Made by a program: the position numbers and the translations under genes. Positions 25,916-41,170 of a stretch of DNA of 64,000 bases are shown piece by piece (positions within the stretch are counted from its first letter, which is position 1; each line of letters starts with the position of its first letter). The notes below the pieces were generated by a model. It had not been told where the DNA came from. It saw only the letters and a list, made by a program, of their open reading frames with translations, and did no database searches. The stretch spans positions 124,001 through 188,000 of the forward strand of contig JAMPEQ010000004.1 of NCBI GenBank assembly GCA_023665085.1, read 5' to 3'. This DNA comes from Bacteroides sp. Its GTDB lineage: Bacteria; Bacillota; Clostridia; Oscillospirales; Acutalibacteraceae.

Positions 25916-26977
25916 ATGGTAATTAATATGACAAATTCCAATATTGTAAGGGTAAATAAAAACAATCTTGACGAATATGAAAGCTTTATAAAACAGCATC
26001 CTAAGGGACTTTTTCAGCATTCTTCAAAATGGGCAAAAGTAAAAAGTGCATGGAAATTTGAAGCAATTATGCTCAAGGATGAAAATGGTAATATAAAAGG
26101 CTCTGCAAGCGTGTTAATCCGTTCTATTCCTGTTATTAAAAATTCTCTTATGTATTGCTGCCGAGGCTTTGTTTGTGATGAAAATGATTTTGATACATTT
26201 GACAAGCTTTTTGACGGACTTCTTGAAATAGGAAAAGAATACAAAGCCTACTGTCTGAAAATTGATCCTGAAATTGTTATTGAAAACAAGGAATTCAAAA
26301 AGCACATTACCGACAAGGGCTTTGTTGAGCTTAATCCGGGATGCATGGATTTTGAAAATGTTCAGCCAAGATTTGTTTACTGCTTTGACTACAATAATTT
26401 AAGTGAAGAAGAGTTAATGCTCACCTTTAAGTCTGATTACAGAAATAGAATAAGAAAAGCAGGCAAAAAAGGTGTTGAAATAAAAATCTGCGGTAAGGAA
26501 GCGCTTGATGACTTTGTAAGAATTATGAATGAAACAGGTGAAAGAGATGGTTTCTCTACCCGCCCTAAAGAATATTTTGAACAAATACTGGACTGCATGA
26601 CAGATGACGCAAGACTTTATATGGCTTACTATGATGGCAAAGCTATTGCAGGAACTCTTGCAATAAAATGGGGACAGAATGTTATGAAGTATCAATATGG
26701 TGCTTCATCAAATTCACACAGAAACGTATATCCTAATTACGCACTGCAGTGGGCAATGATACAGTGGGGTATGGAATGCGGATGCAAACTTTATGATTTC
26801 GGCGGTATTTCAGGCGACTGTCAGAATCCTGATAATTCTCACTATGGATTGTGGCGCTTCAAGCACGGCTTCGGCGGATATATGAAAGAATTTGTTGGTG
26901 AATTTGACTATATTATTAACAAGCCTGTTTATAACTTATATAACACAGGCATGAAGATACTTGAGAAAATAAGATAG
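25916..26977 (+). CDS. FemABX peptidyltransferase-like protein
   Basis: 353 aa. Fem family: uses aminoacyl-tRNA to add an amino acid to the lipid II stem peptide, building the peptidoglycan cross-bridge. Seen: LFQHSSKWAKVKSAWKFEAI at the N-terminus, FKSDYRNRIRKAGKKGVEI, and LYDFGGISGD near the C-terminus, typical of the double GNAT fold. Two starts are possible: the ATG at 25916 sits only 2 nt after AAAGG, and the ATG at 25928 (MTNSN) sits 14 nt after; neither spacing is ideal. It is followed 11 bp later by alanine racemase, and both act in cell-wall synthesis. Confidence 0.88.
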   Translation: MVINMTNSNIVRVNKNNLDEYESFIKQHPKGLFQHSSKWAKVKSAWKFEAIMLKDENGNIKGSASVLIRSIPVIKNSLMYCCRGFVCDENDFDTFDKLFDGLLEIGKEYKAYCLKIDPEIVIENKEFKKHITDKGFVELNPGCMDFENVQPRFVYCFDYNNLSEEELMLTFKSDYRNRIRKAGKKGVEIKICGKEALDDFVRIMNETGERDGFSTRPKEYFEQILDCMTDDARLYMAYYDGKAIAGTLAIKWGQNVMKYQYGASSNSHRNVYPNYALQWAMIQWGMECGCKLYDFGGISGDCQNPDNSHYGLWRFKHGFGGYMKEFVGEFDYIINKPVYNLYNTGMKILEKIR

Positions 26978-26988
26978 GTAAAAATAAA

Positions 26989-28062
26989 ATGAGCAGATAC
27001 GTTATAGATAAGGCGCTGTTAAAAGAAAATATTGAACTGATTAAAGAAAGAGCAGGGGTTCCGATTATTGCAGTGGTAAAAGGCAACGGATACGGCTTCG
27101 GAATCAAGGAAATGACTGCTGTTTTCAAGGCAAGCGGTATAAAGACATTTGCCGTGACAGAGGTTGACGACATAAAAGAACTCAAAGGCATGCTGAATGA
27201 AGAAGACATACTTGTTATGCGTTCAACCTGTATTAAAGAAGAAGCAGAAATAATAGTTGAAAACGGATGCATTGCAACAATAGGCTCTTTTAACAGTGCA
27301 TCGGTAATAAACGATGTTTCAAAAAAACTGGGTGTAAAAACAAAATGTCACCTGAAAATTGACACTGGTATGGGAAGATATGGCTTTATGCCCAGTGAAA
27401 TCGAAGATGCAATAAAATGTTATGATTTTGAAAATCTTGAATTCATAGGCGCTTACACTCATTTTTCATCTGCTTTTACAAACAGAGAACTTACAAAAGC
27501 TCAGCTTACACTTTTTAAAGATACAATGAAACAAATAAAAAATGCAGGCAAGGATGTAGGTATTATTCACTGTGCAAACTCCCCCGCTCTTCTTAACGTT
27601 GAGGATGTATGTCTCGATAGCGTGCGTCTGGGCTCTGCTTTTACAGGAAGGGTAATCACACAAAAAAGCACAGGTCTTAACAGACTTGGTTCGCTTGAAG
27701 CAGATGTAATAGAAATAAAAAATGTTCCGTCAGGGTATCCAATCGGCTACAACGGTCATTTTGTTACCAAAAGAGAAACTAAAATTGCAATTATTCCTAT
27801 CGGTCATTATGATGGCTTCGGACTTACAAAGGAAAAAGAAATTGCAGATTTTCATTCTGTGCTTTCTCAGCTGAAAAAGTTTTTGAAAAAGCAGCAGCTT
27901 TATGTTAAAATTAACGGCAGAATGTACAGTGTTATTGGTGAAATAGGACTGAGCCATACTGCAGTTGACATTACAGGCAGTGATGTTAAAATCGGTGACA
28001 CAGCTAGTGTAGACATATCTCCACTTATGGTTAATCCGAGAATACCAAGAGTATACAAATAA
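26989..28062 (+). CDS. alr: Alanine racemase
   Basis: 357 aa. PLP enzyme making D-alanine for peptidoglycan. Seen: PLP lysine K31 in AVVKGNGYGFG, the KIDTGMGRYGF signature, GYNGHF with the likely catalytic tyrosine, and the C-terminal beta-domain (MYSVIGEIGLSHTAVDIT). The familiar PIGYADGY is PIGHYDGFG here, a small departure. The ribosome-binding site is weak, but the gene starts 11 bp after the FemABX gene, so coupling is likely. A lysine or serine racemase specificity cannot be excluded from sequence alone. Confidence 0.85.
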   Translation: MSRYVIDKALLKENIELIKERAGVPIIAVVKGNGYGFGIKEMTAVFKASGIKTFAVTEVDDIKELKGMLNEEDILVMRSTCIKEEAEIIVENGCIATIGSFNSASVINDVSKKLGVKTKCHLKIDTGMGRYGFMPSEIEDAIKCYDFENLEFIGAYTHFSSAFTNRELTKAQLTLFKDTMKQIKNAGKDVGIIHCANSPALLNVEDVCLDSVRLGSAFTGRVITQKSTGLNRLGSLEADVIEIKNVPSGYPIGYNGHFVTKRETKIAIIPIGHYDGFGLTKEKEIADFHSVLSQLKKFLKKQQLYVKINGRMYSVIGEIGLSHTAVDITGSDVKIGDTASVDISPLMVNPRIPRVYK

Positions 28063-28107
28063 TATAATTTACTATGTTGTCAAAACATAAGACGAAAGAG
28101 GTTTTTT

Positions 28108-29040
28108 ATGATTTATAATAATGTGCTTGAAGCGCTTGGTCATACTCCCATGATTAAGCTGAATAAAATGGCGGACGAAGATTCTGCTGATATATATGTT
28201 AAGTTTGAAGGTCTCAATGTGGGCGGATCTATAAAAACAAGAACTGCATACAACATGATTTGTGATGCTGAAGCAAAGGGATTAATAAATAAAGATACCA
28301 TCATTGTCGAACCCACCAGCGGTAATCAAGGCATTGGCCTTGCCCTTGTTGGTGCCGTTAAAGGATATAAAACGATAATTATTATGCCTGATTCGGTAAG
28401 CCACGAACGAAAAATGCTTGTTGAACACTATGGTGCTAAGGTTGTGCTTATTCATGATGCCGGTAATATTGGAGACTGTATAGAGGAATGTCTTGCAACA
28501 GCAATGCGGATGAGGGATGAAGATCCTAATGTATTTATTCCGCAACAGTTTGAAAATCCTGCTAATCCAATGGTACATAGACATCACACAGGACTCGAAA
28601 TACTTGAACAGGTTGCAGGCAGAATTGACGGCTTTTGTTCAGGAATCGGTACAGGCGGAACTATCACAGGCATAGGAGAAGTTCTTAAGGCACAAAACCC
28701 GAATATTACTATATGGGCAGTTGAGCCGAAAAATGCTGCAATACTCGCTGGAGGAACTGTTGGCACACACAACCAAATGGGTATCGGTGACGGTGTAATT
28801 CCGGATATTTTAAATCAGGATATTTATGAAGATATATGCATCATAACTGATGACGAAGCAATCAATACATCAAAGGATTTAGCAAGGCTTGAAGGTTTGA
28901 TGTGCGGAATCAGCAGCGGTACAAACGTAGCAGCTGCAAAAAAGCTGGCTAAAAAGCTTGGGAAAGGAAAAACAGTTGTAACAGTTCTTCCTGATACGGC
29001 AGAACGCTACTTCTCTACTCCGCTTTTTGAAAACGATTAA
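28108..29040 (+). CDS. Cysteine synthase-like PLP enzyme
   Basis: 310 aa, fold-type II PLP protein. Seen: lysine K43 in GGSIKTRTA, the substrate loop EPTSGNQGIGLA, the GTGGTITGIG phosphate-binding glycines, and a conserved serine region (GISSGTNVAAA) at the end. O-acetylserine sulfhydrylases usually have SVKDR at the lysine; the change to SIKTR suggests a diverged subgroup, so the substrate is uncertain (cysteine synthase, beta-substituted alanine, or related). Preceded by AAAGAGG. It follows alr by 45 bp and is the third gene of the run. Confidence 0.8.
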   Translation: MIYNNVLEALGHTPMIKLNKMADEDSADIYVKFEGLNVGGSIKTRTAYNMICDAEAKGLINKDTIIVEPTSGNQGIGLALVGAVKGYKTIIIMPDSVSHERKMLVEHYGAKVVLIHDAGNIGDCIEECLATAMRMRDEDPNVFIPQQFENPANPMVHRHHTGLEILEQVAGRIDGFCSGIGTGGTITGIGEVLKAQNPNITIWAVEPKNAAILAGGTVGTHNQMGIGDGVIPDILNQDIYEDICIITDDEAINTSKDLARLEGLMCGISSGTNVAAAKKLAKKLGKGKTVVTVLPDTAERYFSTPLFEND

Positions 29041-29071
29041 TTTTAATATTATCTGATTTCCGAGGTACAAA

Positions 29072-30028
29072 ATGATTTTAAGAACTCCGTCCTTTTACAA
29101 GAATTTCAAATGCATTGCCGGTGATTGTCCTGACTCATGCTGTCAGGGCTGGGAAGTTGATGCAGATGAAAAATCTTTGAACTATTATAAAACTTTGAGC
29201 GGCGATATCCGTAAAAAAATAGACAATGTTCTTGACAAGGATGAATTTGGCAACACAATTTTCAGACTGGCAGAAAAAAAACGCTGTCCTTTTCTTAACA
29301 GTGAAAACTTATGTGATATGCATATAGCAATCGGCGGTGAACATACACCATATACATGCAGAACTTTCCCCAGATTTATTAATGACTTCGGCGGAACAAG
29401 AGAAATGGGAATATCATTCTCCTGCCCCGTTGCATCAGACATGATGTATAATTTGCGGGAACCTATGAGATTTACTGATGATTTTCTTGACGAACTGCCT
29501 GCACTTAATGATATTGATGCACAAACATACTTTTATCTTACAAAGGCAAGAAAAACAGCATTTGAAATTATTCAAAACAGGAATAAACCTATCAGTAAAA
29601 GGCTGATTGAGCTGTTAGAAATCGGTAAAGAGTGGCAGAAGGATTTGGAGAATTATCCTGAACCGTTTGATGATATCGAGTTTTTTGATATTTTCAAAAA
29701 CCCTGAGCTAATTAATCCTGAATGGGCACAAAAGGTTGACAATGGCAAAATAAAGCCTATTGAAAATAATGTTTTTTATGAAAATATTGCATCATATTTC
29801 ATTTTCAGATATTTTCTTCAGGCTGTAAATGACTACGATGTTCTATCAAAGATTAAAATGGCAGCAGTAGGTGTGCTTATTTCAGAATTCTTTGGAAATG
29901 ACAGCTGGACAATCCATCTTTGGAGCAAAGAAACGGAGCATTCGCAGTACAATATGGACAGATATATAAAACTGCTGAGATCCGCCAAATGCCTTTCAAC
30001 CGAAAACTTAATAAAACTATTGAAATAA
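29072..30028 (+). CDS. FliB-like (lysine-N-methylase) cysteine-cluster protein
   Basis: 318 aa. N-terminal cysteine pattern C14, C19, C23/C24, then CPFLNSENLCDMH and YTCRTFPRF, as in FliB, the flagellin lysine methylase family, which is thought to bind an iron-sulphur cluster. Non-flagellated gut Firmicutes also carry such proteins, so the flagellin link is not assured. The start follows TCCGAGG. Odd: the last 190 bp and the terminator are present a second time at 35505-35750, bracketing the Rhs array. Confidence 0.8.
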   Translation: MILRTPSFYKNFKCIAGDCPDSCCQGWEVDADEKSLNYYKTLSGDIRKKIDNVLDKDEFGNTIFRLAEKKRCPFLNSENLCDMHIAIGGEHTPYTCRTFPRFINDFGGTREMGISFSCPVASDMMYNLREPMRFTDDFLDELPALNDIDAQTYFYLTKARKTAFEIIQNRNKPISKRLIELLEIGKEWQKDLENYPEPFDDIEFFDIFKNPELINPEWAQKVDNGKIKPIENNVFYENIASYFIFRYFLQAVNDYDVLSKIKMAAVGVLISEFFGNDSWTIHLWSKETEHSQYNMDRYIKLLRSAKCLSTENLIKLLK

Positions 30029-30083
30029 TAATAAACTCCGCTGACGGTGATTTTATATCACTATGCCTGTGGAGTTATTTTTT
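29838..30083. repeat. Direct repeat, copy A (fliB-like 3' end plus terminator)
   Basis: About 245 bp matching 35505-35750 in the same orientation with roughly 93% identity by eye. This copy is the intact end of the gene and shows that the block between the copies (30084-35504) is an insertion or duplication unit. Confidence 0.9.
30034..30082 (+). terminator. Terminator of the FliB-like gene
   Basis: AACTCC at 30034 pairs with GGAGTT at 30071, with an inner GGTGAT/ATCAC stem, followed by TTATTTTTTA. Confidence 0.8.
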
Positions 30084-30209
30084 ATTTCAATATAAAATAT
30101 TATTATTGTATTATAATAGCATGCTAAGAAAACTCAGCCTTTTTTATGAAGTTCTATTCATAGTATTATAACAAATAAAAGAGTATATAGTGGCAATATA
30201 TAAATTACC

Positions 30210-30617
30210 TTAATATGTGCATTTTATGTAAGAAATAAATAATAACAATAAGATACTTACTATTGTGAATAATTTACTTATTTTGTATTTCTTGACAGAA
30301 ATATCTATCTTTTTATTAATTTTATAATCAAATAAAAAATATGTTAAAGTACTGACTAAAACACAGAAAATTAAAACTATTTGGGTAATTGAATAAAATG
30401 CAACGGCAAAACTTTTGTATGATGAGTATAAAATAAATAGTATTAGTCCTATTATTCCTAAAGATATTATAAACTCACCTTTGTCACCCCAATAATCATA
30501 TGTTCCGTTTTTTCTTTTTCTATTTACTAACTTCATTAATAAATGGATTCCCCAAAAAAACAGTAATGCAATTGATAGAAAATATGTTATTCCAGAATAA
30601 TAAGTTTCTTGTGCCAT
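30210..30617 (-). CDS. Small membrane protein, candidate Rhs immunity protein
   Basis: 135 aa with about four hydrophobic helices (SGITYFLSIALLFFWGIHLL, the GIIGLILFILY region, VLIFCVLVSTLTYFLF, LFTIVSILLLLFISYI). No family recognised. A good AAAAGGAG precedes the ATG. It is the last gene of the orphan Rhs array. Just upstream are about 20 bp resembling the tail of the tip remnant at 35299, so this may protect against that lost toxin. Membrane location suggests guarding against a membrane-acting or envelope-crossing toxin. Inference from position. Confidence 0.6.
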   Translation of the reverse strand: MAQETYYSGITYFLSIALLFFWGIHLLMKLVNRKRKNGTYDYWGDKGEFIISLGIIGLILFILYSSYKSFAVAFYSITQIVLIFCVLVSTLTYFLFDYKINKKIDISVKKYKISKLFTIVSILLLLFISYIKCTY

Positions 30618-30699
30618 TTAACAAAACTCCTTTTAATATCTCTTTATAATACAATGTACATATATACATTGTTGAATTAATATTCAATTTATATTTTTA

Positions 30700-30815
30700 T
30701 GATTTCAAAAATATAGTATGTAATCAAAAACGAATGAGCTTTTCTCAGCAATATTTTTGTGTTTTTCTAGTATTTCAATTCAGTATTTATAAATTTAGTC
30801 TCTTTTAGCCACTAA
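30700..30815 (-). pseudogene. Remnant of an Rhs immunity gene
   Basis: The minus-strand sequence reads WLKETKFIN... and aligns with the 3' half of the immunity gene at 32872-33162, with several mismatches and an early stop. The 5' half is gone; it is joined directly to an Rhs core fragment. Confidence 0.75.
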
Positions 30816-31043
30816 ATAAACAAATCAATTCCTGTAGATATTTCTTTTGAGTTTTGTGCAAATTGTGCCAAATCCTCATTAATGAATCTGCATATTGAAG
30901 GATCATAATAGCGGGATTGGAGATAGTAATATCCTGTTTCGGCATCACAATAATATCCGCGATATCTTATCGGATTTGCTTTTGCAAGCCGCAGCTGCTC
31001 CTCAATTCTTGAATCAGCTTTAATGATATTTTTTACATTCCCC
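30815..31043 (-). pseudogene. Rhs core fragment joined to an immunity remnant
   Basis: Encodes DSRIEEQLRLAKANPIRYRG, the RYYDPSICRFIN core box, then EDLAQFAQNSKEISTGIDLF, and a stop at the junction. 30877-31043 is almost identical to the orphan cores at 32117 and 33860, but the following residues differ (EDLAQFAQ instead of ADIPQIAK), so it comes from another Rhs variant. The upstream core and the toxin tip are missing. Confidence 0.8.
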
Positions 31044-31054
31044 CTTATGTTAAT

Positions 31055-31441
31055 CTATTTCAAATACTCAAATAATATACCATTAGCTTCTTCTTGCACA
31101 CGCTGATTAGAAATAAACAGAATACTGACTTTAGGATTATTCAATCTATCCAAAAAGGTTTGTTCTGATAAATTACTTCTTTCCTGCGTAAATGCGTCTA
31201 TAGGATAGCCATTATTAATCAAATTCTCTTTGGTTTCTTTTTCAATTTTTTTAGTTAATCCATTATTATGAGCCATTTTTAAATTAGAATCAGTTTCAAA
31301 AATGTATACTATTACAAGCGATCCGGTATTAACTTTGAAATTACCATAGTAGTATGTGGCAAAAATACTAGGAATTGAATTTACATTTGATTTTTTTACA
31401 TTAAGAATGCAGTTATTGATTATTCTTTTTAACTTACTCAT
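31055..31441 (-). CDS. Candidate immunity protein for the orphan Rhs tip at 31476
   Basis: 128 aa, soluble, no signal peptide or membrane helix. Begins MSKLKRIINNCILNVKKS; contains a beta-rich middle (GSLVIVYIFETD) and ends ILFEYLK. No family recognised. It begins 34 bp after the stop of the orphan toxin cassette, the standard toxin-then-immunity order. It probably binds the tip domain encoded just upstream. Function inferred only from position. Confidence 0.65.
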   Translation of the reverse strand: MSKLKRIINNCILNVKKSNVNSIPSIFATYYYGNFKVNTGSLVIVYIFETDSNLKMAHNNGLTKKIEKETKENLINNGYPIDAFTQERSNLSEQTFLDRLNNPKVSILFISNQRVQEEANGILFEYLK

Positions 31442-31475
31442 GTTATCGTAACCCCTAATATTATTTAATAAAATG

Positions 31476-32627
31476 CTAAATGATTTTCATTCCGGTCTCT
31501 CTAACAATTTTGTATTCTATTTGAGCAAATATGCTTTCGCTACTAAAAACAGATACTTTAATAAACACGTTAACATATGTTTGTTTTCCGACAGCCGATT
31601 TTACAAATTGTTTTGATGATGCTTCCCAAAATGGTTTCATAAATTTATATCCTTTATTGGAACCTAAAACCTTGGTTGCAGCTTTATTCATTGCAGATAA
31701 TAGTTTTCCTTTTTTAGTCATTTCAAGTGTTTTCAAACCATTTTTTGCCGCAAAATTTGCAGCAGTTCCACCAGCACCATTCATTCCGCCACCTGACCAT
31801 AAAACTATACCACTTGATCCAGCAGCTGCTGCACCTACAGCATAACCAACACAGGCACCAATTACGGCGCCAATTGCAGCACCACCAACAACATATTTCC
31901 AACGTTTATCCTTCGGTACTCTTAAGATTCGTGATAATGCATAACCAGCCGCACCACCAATCACTACACCTGCAACGGCACCAATTATTATGCAGGTTGT
32001 AACAGCTAACATTCCAGAAGGATCACTATTATTTATAGGATTATCATTGCAATATGTAAATAGATTTAATCCTATAGAATTATCTTTTGCTTGTTTTGCT
32101 ATTTGAGGAATATCGGCATTAATGAATCTGCAGATTGAAGGATCATAATAGCGGGATTGGAGATAGTAATATCCTGTTTCGGCATCACAATAATATCCGC
32201 GATATCTTATCGGATTTGCTTTTGCAAGCCGCAGCTGCTCCTCAATTCTTGAATCAGCTTTAATGATATTTTTTACATTTCCCCATTCATCATAGATATA
32301 TGATGCCATTATATTTCCGATTGTATCTGTTATTGCTATAACGTCTCCAATCTGATTTGTCATATACAGATACTGTGAGCCGTTATATGTGAATCCGAGC
32401 GGTATTCCGTTTAGATCATATTGGAAATGCATTGTGTCAGTTCCGTCTGTCTGTGACAGAATAACACCGTCTTTTGTTGTGTAGTATGTTGTTACACCGT
32501 TTACTGTTTTGCTTGTTCTTATCCCGTTTTCATCATATGTATAACTGTATTCGTTCTCTCCGTCTGTTATACTTTCAAGATTTCTGCCGCTTGTCCATGT
32601 GAATGTTTTATCACCATACGTCAGCAC
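31476..32627 (-). CDS. Orphan Rhs cassette: core end plus glycine-zipper toxin tip
   Basis: 383 aa open frame from a GTG inside the YD-repeat core; the core frame continues upstream to about 32812 without a signal peptide. Residues 1-207: YD repeats and the core-closing box (RYRGYYCDAETGYYYLQSRY, FTYCNDNPINNSDPSG). After DPSG: a glycine/alanine-rich segment (AGVVIGGAAGYAL, IGAVIGACVGYAVG), then a tip with LWSGGGMNGAGGTAANFA, GLKTLEMTKKGKLL and a Trp/Glu-containing end. The tip resembles a class of polymorphic-toxin C-termini starting WSGG and containing TLEMT; activity not assigned. Without its own secretion signal it is a silent cassette that could be recombined onto a full-length rhs. Confidence 0.75.
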   Translation of the reverse strand: MLTYGDKTFTWTSGRNLESITDGENEYSYTYDENGIRTSKTVNGVTTYYTTKDGVILSQTDGTDTMHFQYDLNGIPLGFTYNGSQYLYMTNQIGDVIAITDTIGNIMASYIYDEWGNVKNIIKADSRIEEQLRLAKANPIRYRGYYCDAETGYYYLQSRYYDPSICRFINADIPQIAKQAKDNSIGLNLFTYCNDNPINNSDPSGMLAVTTCIIIGAVAGVVIGGAAGYALSRILRVPKDKRWKYVVGGAAIGAVIGACVGYAVGAAAAGSSGIVLWSGGGMNGAGGTAANFAAKNGLKTLEMTKKGKLLSAMNKAATKVLGSNKGYKFMKPFWEASSKQFVKSAVGKQTYVNVFIKVSVFSSESIFAQIEYKIVRETGMKII

Positions 32628-32710
32628 ATTTCCGTTTGCATCATATGTCAGCTCGTCATTGTTTACTGCTGTCAGCCGGTCTTTCCAGCCACTGTTTGCA
32701 TAAGTAAATG
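32005..32710. repeat. Direct repeat R1 (Rhs core end)
   Basis: About 705 bp matching 33751-34455 in the same orientation, about 16 mismatches seen. The first 299 bp, next to the toxin junction, show no mismatch. Confidence 0.9.
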
Positions 32711-32871
32711 TTGTTATTTCAATCGGAGATGATGTAATATTTTCATCTCTCGTATGGTTGTAGATTTTCCTGAAAATAATATTGCTGCGTGCATCATATG
32801 TACAGAACTTTATACACAGGGCTGAGTTTCCCCAGCCCTGTTAGAGCAATATAATTTATATTGTTATGATT

Positions 32872-33162
32872 TTAAAAATATAGTATTAAATCAAAATTAT
32901 ATGAACTTTGCTCATCAATGTTTTTATGCTTTTCTAATATTTCGATGTTACTATTTATAAATTTTGTTTCCTTTAACCATTGAATTACAGCTGTATCGTC
33001 ATAACTTAACCCAGTAGTCATTCCTGTTTTCTCTGTATAACATTTTTGTTTTTTTAGCCATTTTTCAAATTGGTTATACAAACCTTTTTTTAATTCTTTT
33101 TCAGAAATATCTGCCACTTTTATAATTGTATAAAACATATCAAAATTTAATCTGACTATCAT
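32872..33162 (-). CDS. Candidate immunity protein for the orphan Rhs tip at 33180
   Basis: 96 aa, soluble, acidic-basic mixed (ISEKELKKGLYNQFEKWLKK, AVIQWLKETKFINSNIEILE). No family recognised. It follows the stop of the upstream tip cassette by 17 bp, so it is likely its immunity partner. A decayed copy of its 3' half lies at 30700-30815. A hairpin (CAGGGCTG/CAGCCCTG at 32818-32842) lies downstream, without a clear T-run. Confidence 0.65.
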   Translation of the reverse strand: MIVRLNFDMFYTIIKVADISEKELKKGLYNQFEKWLKKQKCYTEKTGMTTGLSYDDTAVIQWLKETKFINSNIEILEKHKNIDEQSSYNFDLILYF

Positions 33163-33179
33163 AATATATCACCATATAA

Positions 33180-34373
33180 TTAAATATAGAAAACATGAGA
33201 ATTGCTACTGTGTTTATAGATATGATAATGCCAATAATAACCCTGTCCTAAACTTCCATGTTTTTCTGGTCCTTTAGGTTTTCTGTTGCCACCAGCTATG
33301 TATGCAGCAGATTTAGCGTAACTTTGATTTCTTGACATAACATTTAACCCTTTACGAATTCTTGATATAGCCGAATTATTAGATAATCGACTTCCTAATA
33401 TCAAAACACCATGAGACATATAGGCAACCCAATAGTCATAACGTCTATCGTTTTTTACAATAGTTTTTACTTTTGCGTCTGCAACAGCAATTGAAATTGC
33501 CGTTGAAACAGCCTTTGCAGTTGTTTTAGCGATACGTTTTGCATAAGAATAAGCCGATCTTATAGAAGTTACAACTAATGTTTTAATTACAGCATATTTC
33601 AATTTATATGTTGAACTTAAACTGTTTAACATATCAGCAACAAAAGAATAATCTATTCTGCTAATTATTGTCGATAATGCCCAAGTTATGCCTATAGCGG
33701 CAACTAAAGCTAATAATATTGCTCCAATAGATGATGCAGTCAAAATTCCTGCTAACATTCCAGAAGGATCACTATTATTTATAGGATTATCATTGCAATA
33801 TGTAAATAGATTTAATCCTATAGAATTATCTTTTGCTTGTTTTGCTATTTGAGGAATATCGGCATTAATGAATCTGCAGATTGAAGGATCATAATAGCGG
33901 GATTGGAGATAGTAATATCCTGTTTCGGCATCACAATAATATCCGCGATATCTTATCGGATTTGCTTTTGCAAGCCGCAGCTGCTCCTCAATTCTTGAAT
34001 CAGCTTTAATGATATTTTTTACATTTCCCCATTCATCATAGATATATGACGCCATTATATTTCCGATTGTATCTGTTATTGCTATAACGTCTCCCATCTG
34101 ATTTGTCATATGCAAATACTGTGAGCCGTTATATGTAAATCCGAGCGGTGTTCCGTTTGGATCATATTGGAAATACATTGTGTCAGTTCCGTCTGTCTGT
34201 GACAGAATAACACCATCTTTTGTTGTGTAGTATGTTGTTACACCGTTTACTGTTTTGCTTGTTCTGATTCCGTTTTCATCATATGTATAGCTGTATTCGT
34301 TCTCTCCGTCTGTTATACTTTCAAGATTTCTGCCGCTTGTCCATGTGAATGTTTTATCACCATACGTCATCAC
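33180..34373 (-). CDS. Orphan Rhs cassette: core end plus histidine-rich tip
   Basis: 397 aa from a GTG within the YD-repeat core; the reading frame continues upstream to a TGA at 34535. The core end is nearly identical to the cassette at 31476. After DPSG the tip has a hydrophobic segment (GAILLALVAAIGITWAL), an Ala/Lys-rich helix region and a C-terminus with GGNRKPKGPEKHGSLGQGYY then WHYHIYKHSSNSHVFY. The clustered histidines suggest a metal-dependent nuclease-type toxin, but no known family is claimed. It has no signal peptide, so it is a stored cassette. Its immunity candidate follows at 33162. Confidence 0.75.
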   Translation of the reverse strand: MMTYGDKTFTWTSGRNLESITDGENEYSYTYDENGIRTSKTVNGVTTYYTTKDGVILSQTDGTDTMYFQYDPNGTPLGFTYNGSQYLHMTNQMGDVIAITDTIGNIMASYIYDEWGNVKNIIKADSRIEEQLRLAKANPIRYRGYYCDAETGYYYLQSRYYDPSICRFINADIPQIAKQAKDNSIGLNLFTYCNDNPINNSDPSGMLAGILTASSIGAILLALVAAIGITWALSTIISRIDYSFVADMLNSLSSTYKLKYAVIKTLVVTSIRSAYSYAKRIAKTTAKAVSTAISIAVADAKVKTIVKNDRRYDYWVAYMSHGVLILGSRLSNNSAISRIRKGLNVMSRNQSYAKSAAYIAGGNRKPKGPEKHGSLGQGYYWHYHIYKHSSNSHVFYI

Positions 34374-34455
34374 ATTTCCGTTTGCATCATATGTCAGCTC
34401 GTCATCGTTTGCTGCTGTCAGCTGGTCTTTCCAGCCGTTCTCTGCATAGGTAAAA
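33751..34455. repeat. Direct repeat R2 (Rhs core end)
   Basis: Partner of 32005-32710. A third short copy (30877-31043) belongs to the same family. Such repeats give homology for swapping tips by recombination. Confidence 0.9.
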
Positions 34456-34750
34456 TTAATCGTTTTTCTTGGTTTTGAAGTTATCTCATTATTTCTTGTA
34501 TATCTATAAATATTCTTTGTTAAAACATTTCCTCATTCATCATAAGTATAAGTTGATGTATATGAACTGTCTAATTTGCTGTCAACACGAACTATCTGAT
34601 TGCTCGAATTATAGGTGTAGAATTGTGAAACTTCATCAAACCCTGATGCTATAATTTTACCTTTATCATCATATTGATTTACAAATCCGGATGTATAGTT
34701 TTCATTGCTGTCTCTGTACGAATAAAGCTTATTCGTTATATTTTTTTATC
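34374..34750 (-). pseudogene. Upstream part of the orphan Rhs core, with nonsense codon
   Basis: The frame upstream of the 33180 cassette still reads as YD repeats (ITNKLYSYRDSNENYTSGFV, SNQIVRVDSKLDSSYTSTYT), interrupted by TGA at 34533-34535 where a tryptophan-type codon is expected in YDEWGNV. No start, no signal peptide. It ends around 34750, before the next small gene. Confidence 0.75.
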
Positions 34751-34809
34751 AACTAATGCATCATTTTTATAAACAGCCTCTAGCTACTCCTACGTCAAAT
34801 AATAGATAT

Positions 34810-35283
34810 TTATACCTTAATTTTTTTTTGAATTATATAACTTCTATCAGAATTCCCATTATCATTATCACATTTAATCTTAAACGTAAAAAATTCAGAT
34901 AAAAGTTTATCGTACAATTCTTCAGCCTCTGCAACAGTATTACAATCAATTGTATACCCAAATATATTTTCACTTTTACTCTGAACAGTTGAAGCGATTT
35001 CTTCTCCAATTTCAAGTGCATCAATACTAAGTGGAAAATATTCTTTAGATTCACCGTCATTACAATAAACCAATATATCGTATTTTGATTTATTATCAAT
35101 CATAAAGTTCACTTCTATTTTATTATCAGTAATTTTATCAATATCAATATCAATATTAATTACAATCTTTGACATTTCATCATTAAAATGTTTATTACTA
35201 ATAACAGCTATAGAAAAATATGAAGCAATTAAGAACGCAACAATCAAGATAAATAATAAAATATACTTTAATTTTTTATTCAT
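34810..35283 (-). CDS. Membrane-anchored small protein, candidate immunity protein
   Basis: 157 aa. One N-terminal membrane helix (KYILLFILIVAFLIASYFSI), then an extracytoplasmic domain (KITDNKIEVNFMIDNKSKYD, GESKEYFPLSIDALEIG). No lipobox cysteine. A strong GAAGGAG precedes the ATG at 35283. It starts 15 bp after the stop of a toxin-tip remnant (35299), hence likely its immunity partner. No family recognised. Confidence 0.6.
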   Translation of the reverse strand: MNKKLKYILLFILIVAFLIASYFSIAVISNKHFNDEMSKIVINIDIDIDKITDNKIEVNFMIDNKSKYDILVYCNDGESKEYFPLSIDALEIGEEIASTVQSKSENIFGYTIDCNTVAEAEELYDKLLSEFFTFKIKCDNDNGNSDRSYIIQKKIKV

Positions 35284-35298
35284 AATTCTACATCTCCT

Positions 35299-35505
35299 TC
35301 AATACAAAGTACATATGTATATAGTAGGATTAGTGTATTGAACAAATGTATATGCCACATCTGCATAAACATTCTCTTCCTTGTTGCAAATTTTACCATT
35401 TGCATTTTTACATGTTTGAACCTTATTGTTTCTAATTTTTCTAATATCATACTTTTTCTTTTTACCGTTTCTACTTCCTGTATGTGCATAATAAAAAATA
35501 TGATA
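35299..35505 (-). pseudogene. 3' remnant of an Rhs tip fused to foreign sequence
   Basis: The minus-strand frame reads TYHIFYYAHTGSRNGKKKKY ... KIRNNKVQTCKNANGKICNK ... and ends before the gene at 35283. Upstream of 35505 the same frame is antisense to the fliB copy B, so the toxin's start is lost. It is placed like the other tips: stop, short gap, immunity candidate. Confidence 0.55.
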
Positions 35506-35690
35506 TGTTCTATCAAAGATAAAAACGGCAGCAGTAGGTGTGCTTATTTCAGAGTTCTTTGGAAATGACAGCTGGACAATCCATCTGTGGAGCAAAGGAA
35601 CAGAGCATTCGCAGTATAATATGGACAGATATAAAAAACTGATGAAATCGCCAAATGCCTTTCAACCGAAAACTTAATAAAACTATTGAA
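35505..35690 (+). pseudogene. Remnant of the FliB-like gene 3' end
   Basis: Matches the last 63 codons of the gene at 29072-30028 (the VGVLISEFFGNDSWTIHLWS region is conserved), with a 1-bp deletion near 35648 and no start. Part of direct-repeat copy B. Confidence 0.85.
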
Positions 35691-35750
35691 AGAATAATAA
35701 ACTCTGCTGATGGTGATTTTATATCTTCCATCTGCGGAGTTATTTTACTA
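35505..35750. repeat. Direct repeat, copy B (fliB-like 3' end plus terminator)
   Basis: Partner of 29838-30083, same orientation. It carries its own version of the terminator (AACTCTGC ... GCGGAGTT). The divergence of about 7% from copy A suggests it came from another strain or is old. Confidence 0.9.
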
Positions 35751-35936: not shown

Positions 35937-36710
35937 CTAACATGCTTGTTTTATATTCTCATAAACACTATAAATGTCTTCAACAAAATCATTTTGCTCT
36001 GTTGCATTTATATTACACAAATTAAAAACACAATATGATTCATCTGAAGATATCATTATAACTTTACTATCATTATTCTTATAAACTCTATATGATGTAT
36101 TATTGAAATTACCATAATCTGTAATTTCATAATCAAGTAACATAGTATTTTCTGCTGTAAATTGCCAAAGAACCAATCTGCTTTTCGACTTACAATACTT
36201 AACATCATATAAAACAGTTTCATCATTAAAATCGCAAAAACTTTGTATTTCAAGATATTCAGTGCTGAAAATTTTATTTTTTTCAACTGATAAATATAAA
36301 GAATTATCTGCCATTTTATTCATATCATTATAATATGGTAACATATCTTTATATATTGTATCACTAATAACATTTTCTCCAAACTGTATATTTGATGAAT
36401 AATTTGAAATGGGGAGTACAACAGAAATAATACTAAATGTAATGAATATTATCGTAAGAACAGAAAGCAAACATTTATTGACTTTATATTTTTTTACTCT
36501 TAATACAATCAAGTATAATAAAAGTGATACACCAAATAAAACAAGGCAAAGTGATATATATCTTAAAACATAAATCAAACATAACCCATTAATATTGTCA
36601 ATAAGGGTTAATTCCGCTGAACTGTAGCTTTTAAAAAAAGATATGAAAAACAATATAATTCCAAAAAACATACTAACTACAGATACTATTAAAGAGACTC
36701 TTCTTGTCAT
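35937..36710 (-). CDS. Membrane protein, candidate immunity protein of the full-length Rhs
   Basis: 257 aa. Three membrane helices in the first 110 residues (VVSMFFGIILFFISFF, LCLVLFGVSLLLYLIV, VLTIIFITFSIISVVL), then an extracytoplasmic domain (about 115-257). No family recognised. It overlaps the rhs stop by 4 nt (ATGA), so it is translated together with the toxin, the usual toxin-immunity arrangement. The membrane anchoring suggests the toxin acts at the membrane or outside it. Inference from context. Confidence 0.65.
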   Translation of the reverse strand: MTRRVSLIVSVVSMFFGIILFFISFFKSYSSAELTLIDNINGLCLIYVLRYISLCLVLFGVSLLLYLIVLRVKKYKVNKCLLSVLTIIFITFSIISVVLPISNYSSNIQFGENVISDTIYKDMLPYYNDMNKMADNSLYLSVEKNKIFSTEYLEIQSFCDFNDETVLYDVKYCKSKSRLVLWQFTAENTMLLDYEITDYGNFNNTSYRVYKNNDSKVIMISSDESYCVFNLCNINATEQNDFVEDIYSVYENIKQAC

Positions 36711-39700
36711 AATTTTTTATAACCTCTTCCCGTTACTTTTATTACATACCAACCATTCAATTGTTTATTTTTAGATACATTAATTAAATAATATCCTTGC
36801 TTATTTTTTGGATCAAGTCCCTTTTTTCCCCAGACTAAATTGTAATAGTCCGTCAAAGATTTATTTTTTATTGCATATTTAGTTAATGATATTGCAACTA
36901 CTGCAAATGACACTAACGCTGCTCCCAGACTTACACCATCACTCTCCGACATGGTTAATAAAGATTCACCAAAAACATTAAAATATGTGTTAATAGTTGG
37001 TGCACTGTAGGATTTCAGTAAATCTACCGACTTCTTCCATTGATTCTTTTTACCGTACGAAATTCGTACAAATTCAGTAGTAAAAATGTTTTTAAATTTT
37101 ACTTCTCTAACTTTCATACCAGTTTTATCAGTATATGTTTTTCCTCTTTTGATAATTCGTTTACGTACTAACAATTTATCTTCAATAAAATATGATAATA
37201 ATTCTGCTTCATTCAATACACATCCACTTGGATCCACATTATTCACAGGATCATTACAGCAGTATGCAAAGAGGTTTGTGCCTGCATAATCGTCTTTCTG
37301 CACCTTTGCATATTCAGGCAGGTCGGAATTAAGAAATCTGCAGAATGGAGCAAAATAGTATCTTGACTGAAGATAATATGAACCGATTTCCATGTCAAAA
37401 TAATAGCCTCTGTACATCATAGGGTTATTATAAATTACATAGTATTCTTCTTCGGAAAATCCGCTTATTGTTTCATAATAAATATTTCCCCATGCTGTAT
37501 AGTTATAGCCTGTTATATATGTACTGTTATCTTCATTTACTATTCCTACTACATCTCCCAGTGCACTCTTGATGTAATAATACATATTTCCGTCGCACTC
37601 TGCACCGATTACCTCATTTTCACTGCTGTAGAAAAAGTTCATTTCATGCACTTTTTCGCCGTTTTCATCTACTGTGTACTGCGAGGTTACTCTTCCGTCT
37701 ATCGTTGTGAAATAGGTTGTATTTCCGTTTACTGTTTTACTTGTTCTGATTCCATCTTCATCATAAGTGTATGAAGTCAATACTTCCCCTGTGTCTCTGG
37801 CGGTTACTTTTTCAAGCTGTCTTCCGTTTGTCCAGCTGAAATCACAGTCTGCAAGCTCTACAGGATTTCCTGCTTCATCATACAATACAGGCATATCAAA
37901 TGCTGTATTTATTTTATCAATCCACGCTGTATTTTCATACTCTAGATCAATTTTACCTGTCTCATTGGCTTTTTCGGTTATCTCGCCTCTTGTAAAATCA
38001 TATGTTTTGACTGACTTTACGTTTCCTCGCTTATCATACTCATACACCATTGTAGAATTGCTGTTATCTTCTCTAACCAGCTGTCCCTTAGCGTCATACG
38101 TATAATATGCTTCATAGTTTTCAATCCAATTACACTCTTTGCTGTTATAATGATATTCTGTTACACGTCCGTTATCATCATATTTATATGATGACAGCGC
38201 ATAATTGTCATCACGTAATTTTGTTTTTATTTCCTCAACATATCCTTTTTCATTATATGAATATGATGTGCTTAAGATTGTCTTTCCGTTATTGTCAACT
38301 ATATCTGTCGAAGCAAGACTATCACTTTCAATATTGCTGTTATAGCTGAACAGCACCTCATTGTCTTTTTTGAAAACATCTGAATTTTCGGTCTGCTCTG
38401 ATATGATAACCATATTGCCGTAGCTTTCGACAAGCTTTGCATTGGTTTTGGTTTCATTTTCTGCCTCTTTGGATTCTATATTTTCGTATGAATAGTATGG
38501 TTCTAGAATTTCTTCGCCGTTTTCATCAAATGAAAGATTGTAGATTTCTACAACTTCGTTATTATATACTGTTTTCTGACTGATATTATAGTCATACTTT
38601 GCTAAAAGCTTTGAATCCTCTTCCCTTTCAGCGTCCGCATATATATACTCAAACTGCTTTTCTTCCGGTGATGAGTCACTATACTGATGGCTTTGCGTAA
38701 GCACCTGCCCAAAGTTGTTGTAGGTATAGCTTACTGTCTGACCGTTGCCGTATTCAATACTTTCAAGGTAATCATTATCAGTGTTGTAATTATACTGAGC
38801 ATATAGATTTCCGCCGGCATAGCTTCCGTCAGCATTTGTTTTTCCGCCTATATACACATTCAGCAAATCACCGTTTTGTTTATACTCATATTTATACAAA
38901 TCAAAGGCTTCTGTTTTTACTGTGCTTGATTTATCATAATATTTATAGTATGTTGCCACGTCAATACAGTTTATTTCTTTTTCAAGGTTTCCGTTTTCGG
39001 CATAATAATATCTTGCTCCGACGTTGGCATCGGAATAGTTATTTTCAGTCGGCAAGCTGTCTTTTGATGCATCGTAATCTTCTGCACCTATCTCCTGAAT
39101 CACTCTGCCGTATTCGTCGTATACCGTTCTGGTATATTCGCCGTTTTCTTCGCAAAGAAGTGTTCTGCCTGCTTTATCATAGATATATGATGCGGTATCT
39201 TTATCACATACTGTTGTCAGAAGATTTCCCATATCATCATATGTATATGAAGTTACAGCAGTTTTTTCTTCATCATTTTCTATATATGTATATATTTCCT
39301 TTGATACATTACCACTGATGTCATATTCATACCGATATACTGCTCCATCGCTGTTTTCTTCCCCGATTACTCTGCCTTTATCGTCATAAGTATACTCTGT
39401 TTTTTCAAAGCATTCAAGTGATGCATCATAGTTTGACGGAGCTTCACCTTCATAATCATCCTTCAGAGAAGCATTTACTAATACATTTTTGTTATTATCG
39501 TAAGTATAATATGTATAGCTGCTGCCATTCTGCTCTCTTATTACATTGCCCTTTGAATCATATGTATAATATGCATCATTGTCCGCATTGCCTGTTATAT
39601 ATGATATTATATTACCATTGGAGTCATAGCTGCAGCTTGTTGTTTCGTCACCTGTCTTTTCTGTTTTTACTCTGTAATATTCATCATATTCATATGATGT

Positions 39701-40864
39701 TACCACTCCGTATTCATCTGTATATTCCACAGGCAGAAAGGCGTCGTTATACACTGTCTTTGTGGTTTCATCTGATGATGTAAGTGTAGTATATGTCATG
39801 TGAGCATCATCATAGGTATACTTAATCCATGAGCCGTTAGCGTATGTAATCTGCTCTAATCTGCCATTGTCATAATATTCAATTGATTTATCATTACTCT
39901 TTGTAAGTTTGTTGTTTGTATATTCATATTGACCTAAATATACCCCTGCCTGATCTGTAACAGTAGTATAATTCCATGTATCGCCGGTCATTGAATAATT
40001 TAATATATTGCCGTTAGGATCAGTTATATCTCTGTTAAAACTATTTCCGTTCCAAATTTGATAATACTCTTTCATAGAAAAAGAGCGTCCTGTTTGATCT
40101 GAAATTGTAAAATCAACAAGTGTAACCTCTCGATTAAGGTCCAGTTTATTATTGAAATTATCTTTTATTTCAGATAGATAATATTTGCCCGAACTCAAAG
40201 AGAAAGTATAATAGTAATTATTTAATAACAAAACATATTTATTTGATTGTTTTTTCAGGGAATAGCCATACAATTCATCAATAAATGTATCATCAGTTGT
40301 TTTTACAAAATTATAAATTGTATTATCAGGCATAGTGACTTGCGCAAAGTTATCTGATAGACTTACATAACTATCAATTGAGTCAAACCAATTTTCATCA
40401 GCACTATTATATGACCTTGAATATTCAAAAGTTACACCATTATATGAAAAATCAAAATCTGTATTACTTTCCGTGTAGACTCCTAATGCTTTACTTGTAG
40501 TAGAGAAATCCTGATACACTGCTGTACCGGATGAGCCTAATCGTGCATATATCCTTGTAGTTTGAAATGCAGGAATAGAGAAAGGAACAGAATATTTTTT
40601 CCATTCGCCATTTTCTCCTATCTTATATTGAATATTTTCAGTGTTGGCATAATCTGTTTTGTATAGCCCTACAAGTTCATTATATCTATAATATTTAACA
40701 TTAGGTGTAGCAGCTTCCGCTGTAATCAAATTATGAAAATCAATTTTATCTGATAATAAAAGATTTCCAAATGTCATTGTAACAAATGTACTAAACGCAA
40801 TTATCACTGACAATATTACACATAATATCTTTTTACTTTTTCTTATTTCATAATTTTTATTCAT
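36707..40864 (-). CDS. Secreted Rhs/YD-repeat protein with polymorphic toxin tip
   Basis: 1385 aa. Signal peptide or N-terminal anchor (residues 12-38, LCVILSVIIAFSTFVTMTFG), N-terminal beta domain, more than twenty YD repeats (TYDDAHMTYT, YEYDEYYRV, EYEYDISGNV-type units) that form a hollow shell, and the core-closing box RGYYFDMEIGSYYLQSRYYF ... NNVDPSG near residue 1220. The tip after it has about 160 residues, including a hydrophobic stretch GAALVSFAVVAISL and the basic end GRGYKKL; no family recognised. The core differs from the orphan cassettes (FLNSDLPEYAK instead of FINADIPQIAK). A conserved repeat pair lies upstream (40942-40971). Probably a contact-dependent toxin like WapA. Confidence 0.88.
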   Translation of the reverse strand: MNKNYEIRKSKKILCVILSVIIAFSTFVTMTFGNLLLSDKIDFHNLITAEAATPNVKYYRYNELVGLYKTDYANTENIQYKIGENGEWKKYSVPFSIPAFQTTRIYARLGSSGTAVYQDFSTTSKALGVYTESNTDFDFSYNGVTFEYSRSYNSADENWFDSIDSYVSLSDNFAQVTMPDNTIYNFVKTTDDTFIDELYGYSLKKQSNKYVLLLNNYYYTFSLSSGKYYLSEIKDNFNNKLDLNREVTLVDFTISDQTGRSFSMKEYYQIWNGNSFNRDITDPNGNILNYSMTGDTWNYTTVTDQAGVYLGQYEYTNNKLTKSNDKSIEYYDNGRLEQITYANGSWIKYTYDDAHMTYTTLTSSDETTKTVYNDAFLPVEYTDEYGVVTSYEYDEYYRVKTEKTGDETTSCSYDSNGNIISYITGNADNDAYYTYDSKGNVIREQNGSSYTYYTYDNNKNVLVNASLKDDYEGEAPSNYDASLECFEKTEYTYDDKGRVIGEENSDGAVYRYEYDISGNVSKEIYTYIENDEEKTAVTSYTYDDMGNLLTTVCDKDTASYIYDKAGRTLLCEENGEYTRTVYDEYGRVIQEIGAEDYDASKDSLPTENNYSDANVGARYYYAENGNLEKEINCIDVATYYKYYDKSSTVKTEAFDLYKYEYKQNGDLLNVYIGGKTNADGSYAGGNLYAQYNYNTDNDYLESIEYGNGQTVSYTYNNFGQVLTQSHQYSDSSPEEKQFEYIYADAEREEDSKLLAKYDYNISQKTVYNNEVVEIYNLSFDENGEEILEPYYSYENIESKEAENETKTNAKLVESYGNMVIISEQTENSDVFKKDNEVLFSYNSNIESDSLASTDIVDNNGKTILSTSYSYNEKGYVEEIKTKLRDDNYALSSYKYDDNGRVTEYHYNSKECNWIENYEAYYTYDAKGQLVREDNSNSTMVYEYDKRGNVKSVKTYDFTRGEITEKANETGKIDLEYENTAWIDKINTAFDMPVLYDEAGNPVELADCDFSWTNGRQLEKVTARDTGEVLTSYTYDEDGIRTSKTVNGNTTYFTTIDGRVTSQYTVDENGEKVHEMNFFYSSENEVIGAECDGNMYYYIKSALGDVVGIVNEDNSTYITGYNYTAWGNIYYETISGFSEEEYYVIYNNPMMYRGYYFDMEIGSYYLQSRYYFAPFCRFLNSDLPEYAKVQKDDYAGTNLFAYCCNDPVNNVDPSGCVLNEAELLSYFIEDKLLVRKRIIKRGKTYTDKTGMKVREVKFKNIFTTEFVRISYGKKNQWKKSVDLLKSYSAPTINTYFNVFGESLLTMSESDGVSLGAALVSFAVVAISLTKYAIKNKSLTDYYNLVWGKKGLDPKNKQGYYLINVSKNKQLNGWYVIKVTGRGYKKL

Positions 40865-41084: not shown

Positions 41085-41170
41085 TGGTGCAGGAGATGGG
41101 ACTTGAACCCACATGAACTTGCATTCACTAGAACCTGAATCTAGCGCGTCTGCCATTCCGCCACTCCTGC
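41085..41170 (-). tRNA. tRNA-Leu (anticodon CAG)
   Basis: 86 nt with an encoded CCA end (41085-41087). Acceptor GCAGGAG/CTCCTGC, anticodon stem CTAGA/TCTAG around loop TTCAGGT (anticodon CAG), a long class II variable arm, and T-loop GTTCAAGTC. The gene is complete, so no sign that it was used as an integration site here. Confidence 0.95.

What the first reader, a model, noticed from the sequence alone, without database searches (positions are those of the whole stretch)
30084..35750. Orphan Rhs array bracketed by duplicated fliB 3' ends
Two copies of about 245 bp (29838-30083 and 35505-35750), same orientation and about 93% identical by eye, carry the last codons and terminator of the FliB-like gene. 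Between them is a 5.4-kb array of orphan Rhs tips and immunity genes; outside is the full-length rhs. This suggests that a donor segment carrying its own fliB 3' end entered by homologous recombination, or an old tandem duplication. The second copy carries a 1-bp frameshift, so only copy A completes a gene. Such a flank would let the whole array be lost or gained in one step.
Basis: partly seen in the sequence, partly recalled or inferred. Interest (0 to 1): 0.8.

Follow-up and report, generated by a model that had tools for sequence, protein, structure and literature searches.

The report
Recombination scar in Rhs toxin array
In a probable gut Eubacterium relative, a second, broken copy of the tail of a neighbouring gene lies inside a toxin locus, probably the scar where two versions of the locus were spliced and the main toxin gene was swapped for an unrelated type.

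Summary
The fliB 3' end and terminator occur exactly twice in this genome, in direct orientation (29838-30081 and 35505-35746, 91.8% identical, E 3e-95). Copy A completes a 318-aa FliB. Copy B is a tail of about 62 codons with a 1-nt deletion and without copy A's stop. Three results change the interpretation. (1) The sequence joined to copy B at 35504/35505 resembles the C-terminus of Amidase_6-type Rhs tips of relatives; an orphan immunity candidate follows. (2) The orphan cores do not descend from the full-length rhs beside them (46% aa identity; separate clades, ultrafast bootstrap 100), so ordinary tip displacement within one core cannot have built the present order. (3) None of 57 relatives' loci with a fliB end has rhs nearby or a second tail, though not all flanks are long. 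Best reading: one homologous and one illegitimate crossover joined two rhs alleles that both ended at fliB, replacing the rhs by an unrelated core type and stranding an old immunity gene and orphans. This is the anatomy described for Vibrio cholerae T6SS effector displacement, here in a Gram-positive Rhs locus. Which side came in, and when, cannot be decided: no same-species strain was found.

The parts
29072..30028 (+). fliB-like gene, complete; ends in copy A
   Evidence: ORF of 318 aa; NF038110 1.2e-60
29838..30083 (+). Copy A: last 62 codons, stop and terminator-like hairpin of fliB
   Evidence: fold -17.2 kcal/mol, z -4.05
30210..30617 (-). imm5: small membrane-protein-like ORF (135 aa), immunity candidate by position only
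   Evidence: 64% homologue in G055:C9, where no rhs core was found in the 19 kb read
30686..30817 (-). 3' end of an imm3-like gene, fused to a core fragment (deleted unit)
   Evidence: 81% DNA match of 30679-30817 to 32848-32985; 79% over 24 aa to imm3; fusion seen
30818..31054 (-). Orphan Rhs core fragment without tip
31055..31441 (-). imm4, immunity candidate (128 aa)
   Evidence: 28% match (E 3e-12) in L147, a locus with rhs fragments
31476..32798 (-). Orphan core 3 with tip 3 (tip 32006-31476)
   Evidence: TIGR03696 7e-21; core extent
32872..33162 (-). imm3, immunity candidate of tip 2 (96 aa)
   Evidence: 65% homologue directly behind the tip-2 homologue in G027:C16
33180..34721 (-). Orphan core 2 (one in-frame stop upstream) with tip 2 (33752-33180)
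   Evidence: TIGR03696 6e-21; tip 70% to G027:C16
34810..35283 (-). imm2, immunity candidate (157 aa, N-terminal hydrophobic stretch by eye) behind the truncated tip
   Evidence: 1 of 300 family genomes matches, our own
35302..35504 (-). Remnant: C-terminus of a truncated Amidase_6-type Rhs tip, cut by copy B
   Evidence: about 29 of 69 residues align with tip C-termini in rhs loci L189, L154, L151, L114, L115; the L189 tip domain is Amidase_6, 1.3e-15
35498..35511 (.). Proposed illegitimate junction between tip remnant and fliB tail; up to 7 nt (AGAACAT on the minus strand) could be shared microhomology (inferred)
35505..35750 (+). Copy B: fliB tail with 1-nt deletion and lost stop, hairpin kept
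   Evidence: fold -20.7 kcal/mol, z -5.33
35937..36710 (-). imm1, immunity candidate of the full-length rhs (257 aa)
   Evidence: overlaps the end of rhs by 4 nt; no homologue among the fetched loci
36707..40864 (-). Full-length rhs (1385 aa), core of a different clade from the orphans
   Evidence: TIGR03696 1.2e-12; 46% to the orphan cores; tree
41085..41170 (-). tRNA-Leu(CAG), its 3' end facing rhs: other border of the island

Best explanation
Copy B is a recombination scar. Two alleles of one rhs locus, both convergent with fliB, were joined by one crossover in homologous flanking DNA and one illegitimate joint at 35504/35505. Allele 1 was rhs(new core)-imm1-fliB. Allele 2 was rhs(old core)-amidase-like tip-imm2-orphans-fliB. 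The joint fused a fliB tail of allele 1 to the tip end of allele 2. The active rhs was thereby replaced whole by a gene of an unrelated core type, while an old immunity gene and older orphans were kept behind it. I prefer the direction in which rhs(new)-imm1-fliB tail came in (about 60:40 over the array coming in). Shown: the two tails, a stretch like a tip end at the joint, the core-clade mismatch, the decayed copy B. Inferred: the existence of two alleles, the homologous anchor, the direction, and that imm1-imm5 are immunity proteins. Expected consequences, also inferred: the orphan tips can hardly be switched onto the active gene by recombination in the core (longest shared run 15-18 nt), so only the immunity genes could still be useful; and the hairpin kept in copy B may separate the active operon from the array. 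The confidence is for the two-allele joint in either direction.
For: Tails: exactly two in the genome, 91.8%. Joint: the peptide read from copy B outward matches the conserved C-terminal block of Rhs tips; in a search of all fetched loci its five best other loci are all rhs loci (L189 E 3e-4, L154 9e-4, L151 0.011, L114 0.049, L115 0.066), and per-locus searches give 5e-7 to 9e-5. The L189 tip domain is Amidase_6. In 4 of the 5, not L154, S-Y or T-Y stands where the remnant has T-Y at the joint. Core switch: full-length against orphan cores 46% aa, orphans 2 and 3 97% to each other; an ML tree of 34 cores puts the window orphans in a 27-member group (ultrafast bootstrap 100) without the window full-length core, which pairs with the L190 full-length core (94). 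Longest exact run between orphan and full-length core 15 and 18 nt, against 522 bp at 95% in the Salmonella tip-switching case (PMC3967940, passages). Same anatomy in print: new effector-immunity module, short conserved downstream region, partial old effector, its immunity gene, array (PMC5361080, passages and section 13).
Against: No parental, donor or empty allele was found: 80 genus genomes (own included) were searched and the best fliB match outside is 74% DNA, so the two alleles and the anchor are unseen. The remnant is short, only about 29 of 69 residues align, and its whole-collection E-values are modest; in 300 family genomes it found nothing better than E 0.001 beyond our own. imm2 and the L189 immunity candidate are not convincingly alike (E 0.12). 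By plain identity the L190 full-length core is no nearer to the window full-length core (52%) than to window orphan 2 (55%), so their pairing rests on the tree. Third positions (5 of 11) do not separate donor origin from decay after local copying. A once-tandem second rhs gene could explain the core mismatch without replacement.
Confidence: 0.62

Rival explanations
1. Same joint, opposite direction (a case within the best explanation, not added to it): the array with its own fliB tail came in, anchored by homology in fliB, and its broken far end was joined to the resident fliB tail, which became copy B. This is.
For: Anchor and joint would lie within one gene, less than about 800 nt apart. All sequence facts fit equally.
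Against: A truncated former tip directly behind the new operon is what replacement from the rhs side predicts. No identity gradient along the tails marks a crossover: mismatches are spread along them.
Confidence: 0.25
2. Old local duplication: the fliB tail was copied within one genome and later rearrangements placed rhs pieces on both sides; copy B has decayed since.
For: A and B resemble each other more than either resembles the ten relatives aligned. Only 5 of 11 coding differences are at third positions, whereas A against 18 relatives gives 0.53-0.75 over 29838-30000. At sites that could be polarised, B carries 4 derived substitutions plus the deletion.
Against: Nothing but the tail is clearly duplicated. 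Copy A also carries 2 derived replacements. Does not explain the tip-like stretch at the joint or the core switch.
Confidence: 0.15
3. Integrative element that uses the fliB 3' end as attachment site, the two tails being its ends.
For: Direct repeats of a gene 3' end flank a segment not seen in relatives' fliB loci.
Against: No integrase or recombinase family among the six main ORFs between the repeats (Pfam, NCBIfam); the repeats are long and diverged; one end cuts what looks like a toxin tip.
Confidence: 0.03

Closest known systems
Effector displacement by homology-facilitated illegitimate recombination in Vibrio T6SS clusters (Kirchberger 2017, PMC5361080; passages and section 13 read)
   Same: New effector-immunity pair in front, a short piece of the conserved downstream flank, the 3' part of the old effector, its immunity gene, then older immunity genes.
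   Different: Gram-positive Rhs locus; the flank piece is the tail of an unrelated gene (fliB) on the opposite strand; orphan core-tip units are kept too; the replaced gene belonged to another core clade; no intermediate strains available.
Rhs C-terminal displacement (Jackson 2009, PMC2935791; passages read)
   Same: Full-length rhs followed by dissociated core-tip fragments; fragments 2 and 3 here (97% identical cores) and the core-4 piece look like ordinary products of it.
   Different: [quoted passage not shown] here the full-length core is of another clade.
Orphan Rhs activation in Salmonella (Koskiniemi 2014, PMC3967940; passages read)
   Same: Main rhs with downstream orphan module.
   Different: There 522 bp at 95% allow fusion; here the longest exact match is 15-18 nt.
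WapA/Rhs of Gram-positive bacteria
   Same: Long repeat-protein toxin with a polymorphic tip and a small ORF behind it (recalled; also stated in the PMC3967940 passages).
   Different: Secretion route and target untested here.

Membership tests
Rhs polymorphic toxin | Rhs-associated core domain followed by a variable tip after DPxG | tested here: met
   TIGR03696 on the full-length gene (1.2e-12) and orphans 2 and 3 (6e-21, 7e-21); DPSG then unrelated tips
Rhs polymorphic toxin | Cognate immunity gene directly behind the tip | tested here: inconclusive
   Small ORF behind each tip; only tip2-imm3 is seen as a pair elsewhere (G027:C16, 70% and 65%)
Rhs C-terminal displacement array (Jackson model) | Orphan cores of the same clade as the full-length gene | tested here: not met
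   46% identity; separate clades, ultrafast bootstrap 100 and 94
Effector displacement by one-sided illegitimate recombination (Kirchberger model) | New module, flank piece, partial old effector, old immunity, older array, in this order | tested here: met
   the partial effector rests on a short alignment
Effector displacement by one-sided illegitimate recombination (Kirchberger model) | Homologous anchor on the other side of the incoming DNA | not testable with these tools
   No parental or sister strain found; 80 genus genomes, best outside fliB match 74% DNA
Effector displacement by one-sided illegitimate recombination (Kirchberger model) | Joint without homology, at most short microhomology (size range recalled) | tested here: inconclusive
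   Up to 7 nt could be shared, inferred from the protein family pattern; the parental sequence is unknown
Integrative element in a gene 3' end | Site-specific recombinase between the repeats | tested here: not met
   six main ORFs scanned; smaller overlapping ORFs were not scanned
FliB, flagellin lysine-N-methylase | NF038110 above cut-off | tested here: met
   206 bits against cut-off 85

The most novel reading that the evidence does not exclude
Rhs loci of this genus change their whole delivery core, not only the tip, by one-sided illegitimate joining that can leave a piece of the far flanking gene as a scar. The layered array is then a fossil record: same-core displacement rounds first, then a core switch that locks the older tips away and leaves only immunity. 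G008:C23 (L190), with a full-length core that pairs with the window's in front of orphans of the other clade, would be a second case of the switch, without a recognised scar.
Probability: 0.3. Interest if true: 0.55.

Novelty: new variant of a known kind. Interest (0 to 1): 0.4.

Why it matters
The published rule for enterobacterial Rhs arrays is that orphans match the core clade of the gene in front. Two of the four loci here that have both an intact full-length core and orphans break it, and one of them carries a flank-gene scar that suggests how: the gene can be swapped whole without homology on one side. That makes a vague step of the displacement model testable from genome sequence, and predicts that such orphans are no longer a switchable toxin reserve, only a possible immunity reserve.

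Tried and rejected
Strains lacking the array: none of the same species found. 57 of the 62 relatives' loci fetched hold the fliB 3' end; of these 53 have at least 0.5 kb behind it, 50 at least 2 kb, 37 at least 6 kb and 34 at least 9 kb. None of the 62 has an rhs core hit at E 1e-4, and none is hit by the tip or immunity queries (E 0.01); the remnant query there hits many fliB genes, but only through its antisense-fliB part. Own-tail BLAST in the 57 loci found no second tail: the matches were 22-68 nt, on the opposite strand, plus one 27-nt same-strand match in L078. imm2 homologues: 1 of 300 family genomes, our own. Remnant: 19 of 300 family genomes at E 0.1 or better, our own included, best other 0.001; not followed up. 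Flank-gene repeats in other rhs loci: a self-repeat scan of 26 sequences (window included) found repeats outside cores in 14, window included; I read the ORF tables of L147, L186, L187, L189 and L190 and recognised no second case of a flank-gene tail inside an array, but did not annotate every repeat. Viral contigs: exact 43-nt pattern, 0 hits. Pfam for tips 1-3: nothing above cut-off. The query for tip 2 was out of frame and is replaced. Literature: seven searches; the listed titles and openings of abstracts describe no flank-gene scar in a Gram-positive Rhs array, but the library lacks most subscription papers. On recheck I corrected some counts and the L189 and L190 statements, and lowered the opposite-direction rival from 0.30 to 0.25 so that it nests within the best explanation.

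Full report
What is there. The window lies in a 2.34-Mb genome (contig C27). The fliB tail query has two places in the genome, at 29838 and 35505. They align over 245 columns at 91.8% and include a terminator-like hairpin that folds in both. Copy A completes a 318-aa gene that matches NF038110. Copy B holds about the last 62 codons with one deleted base and a lost stop.

Reading the array in the direction of rhs transcription (minus strand): full-length rhs 40864-36707, imm1 36710-35937, copy B (antisense) to 35505, tip remnant 35504-35302, imm2 35283-34810, core 2 and tip 2 to 33180, imm3 33162-32872, core 3 and tip 3 to 31476, imm4 31441-31055, a core fragment fused to an imm3-like 3' end (31054-30686), imm5 30617-30210, then copy A of fliB.

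The joint. The minus-strand frame that leaves copy B reads into a peptide whose first 29 or so of 69 residues align with the C-terminal block of Rhs tips. In a search of all fetched loci, without composition correction, the five best other loci are all rhs loci: L189 (E 3e-4), L154 (9e-4), L151 (0.011), L114 (0.049), L115 (0.066); the next locus has E 0.13. Searches of those five alone give 5e-7 to 9e-5. With the longer ORF and composition correction, L189 was the only match not explained by antisense fliB (E 0.002). The L189 tip domain is Amidase_6, 1.3e-15, though the gene it sits on is split into several ORFs. In 4 of the 5 (not L154) a serine or threonine before tyrosine matches the T-Y at the joint, so up to 7 nt (AGAACAT) may have been common to both partners; this is inferred, since the parental tip is gone. 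A search of 300 family genomes with the 69 residues gave only weak matches beyond our own (best E 0.001).

The cores. Orphan cores 2 and 3 are 97% identical to each other but 46% to the full-length core beside them; orphan 2 is 69-70% to the rhs cores on the genome's own contig C6. An ML tree of 34 cores of at least 150 aa (of 43 collected; shorter ones and one misaligned repeat hit dropped) places the window orphans in a 27-member group (ultrafast bootstrap 100) and the full-length core with the L190 full-length core (94) outside it. In L190 (G008:C23) the full-length core likewise differs from the two orphans behind it (41%), and those orphans fall inside the 27-member group. By plain identity, however, the L190 full-length core is 52% to the window full-length core and 55% to window orphan 2, so the pairing rests on the tree. 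In the other two loci that have an intact full-length core and orphans, identity is 76% (L145) and 63-74% (L151); in L189 the front gene is split and shares 70%. So 2 of 4 loci with an intact full-length core disagree.

Relatives. Of 62 fliB loci fetched, 57 hold the fliB 3' end (37 of them with at least 6 kb behind it); none of the 62 has an rhs core hit, and 17 of the 57 have a convergent alr gene. The order ser-alr-cysK-fliB of the window differs from that of those relatives. On the other border, in 4 of 11 tRNA-Leu-odc loci read, a relative of window gene 55446 lies within about 1 kb of the tRNA-Leu, and none of the 11 shows a strong rhs or fliB match. All 80 genus genomes returned, own included, were searched with the 12-kb region: 79 match somewhere, and the best fliB match outside is 74% DNA identity. 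Hence the array-free state of this species could not be sought.

Age and direction. Eleven substitutions in 191 coding nt separate A and B: 5 at third positions, 4 at second, 2 at first. Against 18 relatives A shows 53-75% third-position differences over 29838-30000; with eleven changes this cannot tell decay from donor divergence. Polarised sites give 4 derived substitutions plus the deletion in B and 2 in A.

Mechanism. One illegitimate joint plus one unseen homologous crossover explains the tail, the truncated tip, the surviving immunity candidate and the core mismatch together. Kirchberger et al. describe the same order of pieces in Vibrio cholerae strains 87395 and 490-93 and propose homology-facilitated illegitimate recombination (PMC5361080; passages, section 13). 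Jackson et al. [quoted passage not shown] passages), which is not so here. The orphan and full-length cores share at most 15-18 identical nt, so the switch shown for Salmonella (522 bp, 95%; PMC3967940, passages) is not expected.

Limits. Immunity functions, secretion and toxicity are untested; the names imm1-imm5 rest on position, except imm3 with tip 2, which recur together in G027:C16. imm5 has a 64% relative in G055:C9 without an rhs core in the 19 kb read, so it may not be an immunity gene. Promoter-like matches are close to the shuffled level (81 against 72.2, sd 8.5), and the strict terminator pattern did not list either tail.

Noticed in passing
L033 10951-12362 (G055): In the closest relative the fliB 3' end and the alr 3' end are separated by about 1.4 kb with a helix-turn-helix-like ORF (by eye), flanked by a 66-nt inverted repeat (92%) that starts at the fliB stop codon region.
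   Followed up: partly
L190 7030-15213 (G008:C23): A full-length rhs whose core pairs with the window's in the tree stands before two orphans (99% identical cores) of the other clade; its own tip is a 32% relative of window tip 2.
   Followed up: partly
window 25916-30028: Gene order ser-alr-cysK-fliB, all on one strand, differs from relatives, where cysK-fliB converges with alr-ser; the island lies at a breakpoint of synteny.
   Followed up: partly
window 30686-31054: Core fragment fused to an imm3-like 3' end: a deletion seems to have removed a tip and the start of its immunity gene.
   Followed up: no
L153 3973-15854 (G019:C3): Three long rhs genes in tandem, two of them 93% identical in the core end; a 142-nt stretch recurs before the second and third.
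   Followed up: no
L187 9233-9643 (G055:C9): A 64% relative of imm5 without an rhs core in the 19 kb read.
   Followed up: no
window 41085-41170: The tRNA-Leu(CAG) 3' end faces the rhs start, like an island border; the search for a repeat of its 3' end failed on input and was not repeated.
   Followed up: no
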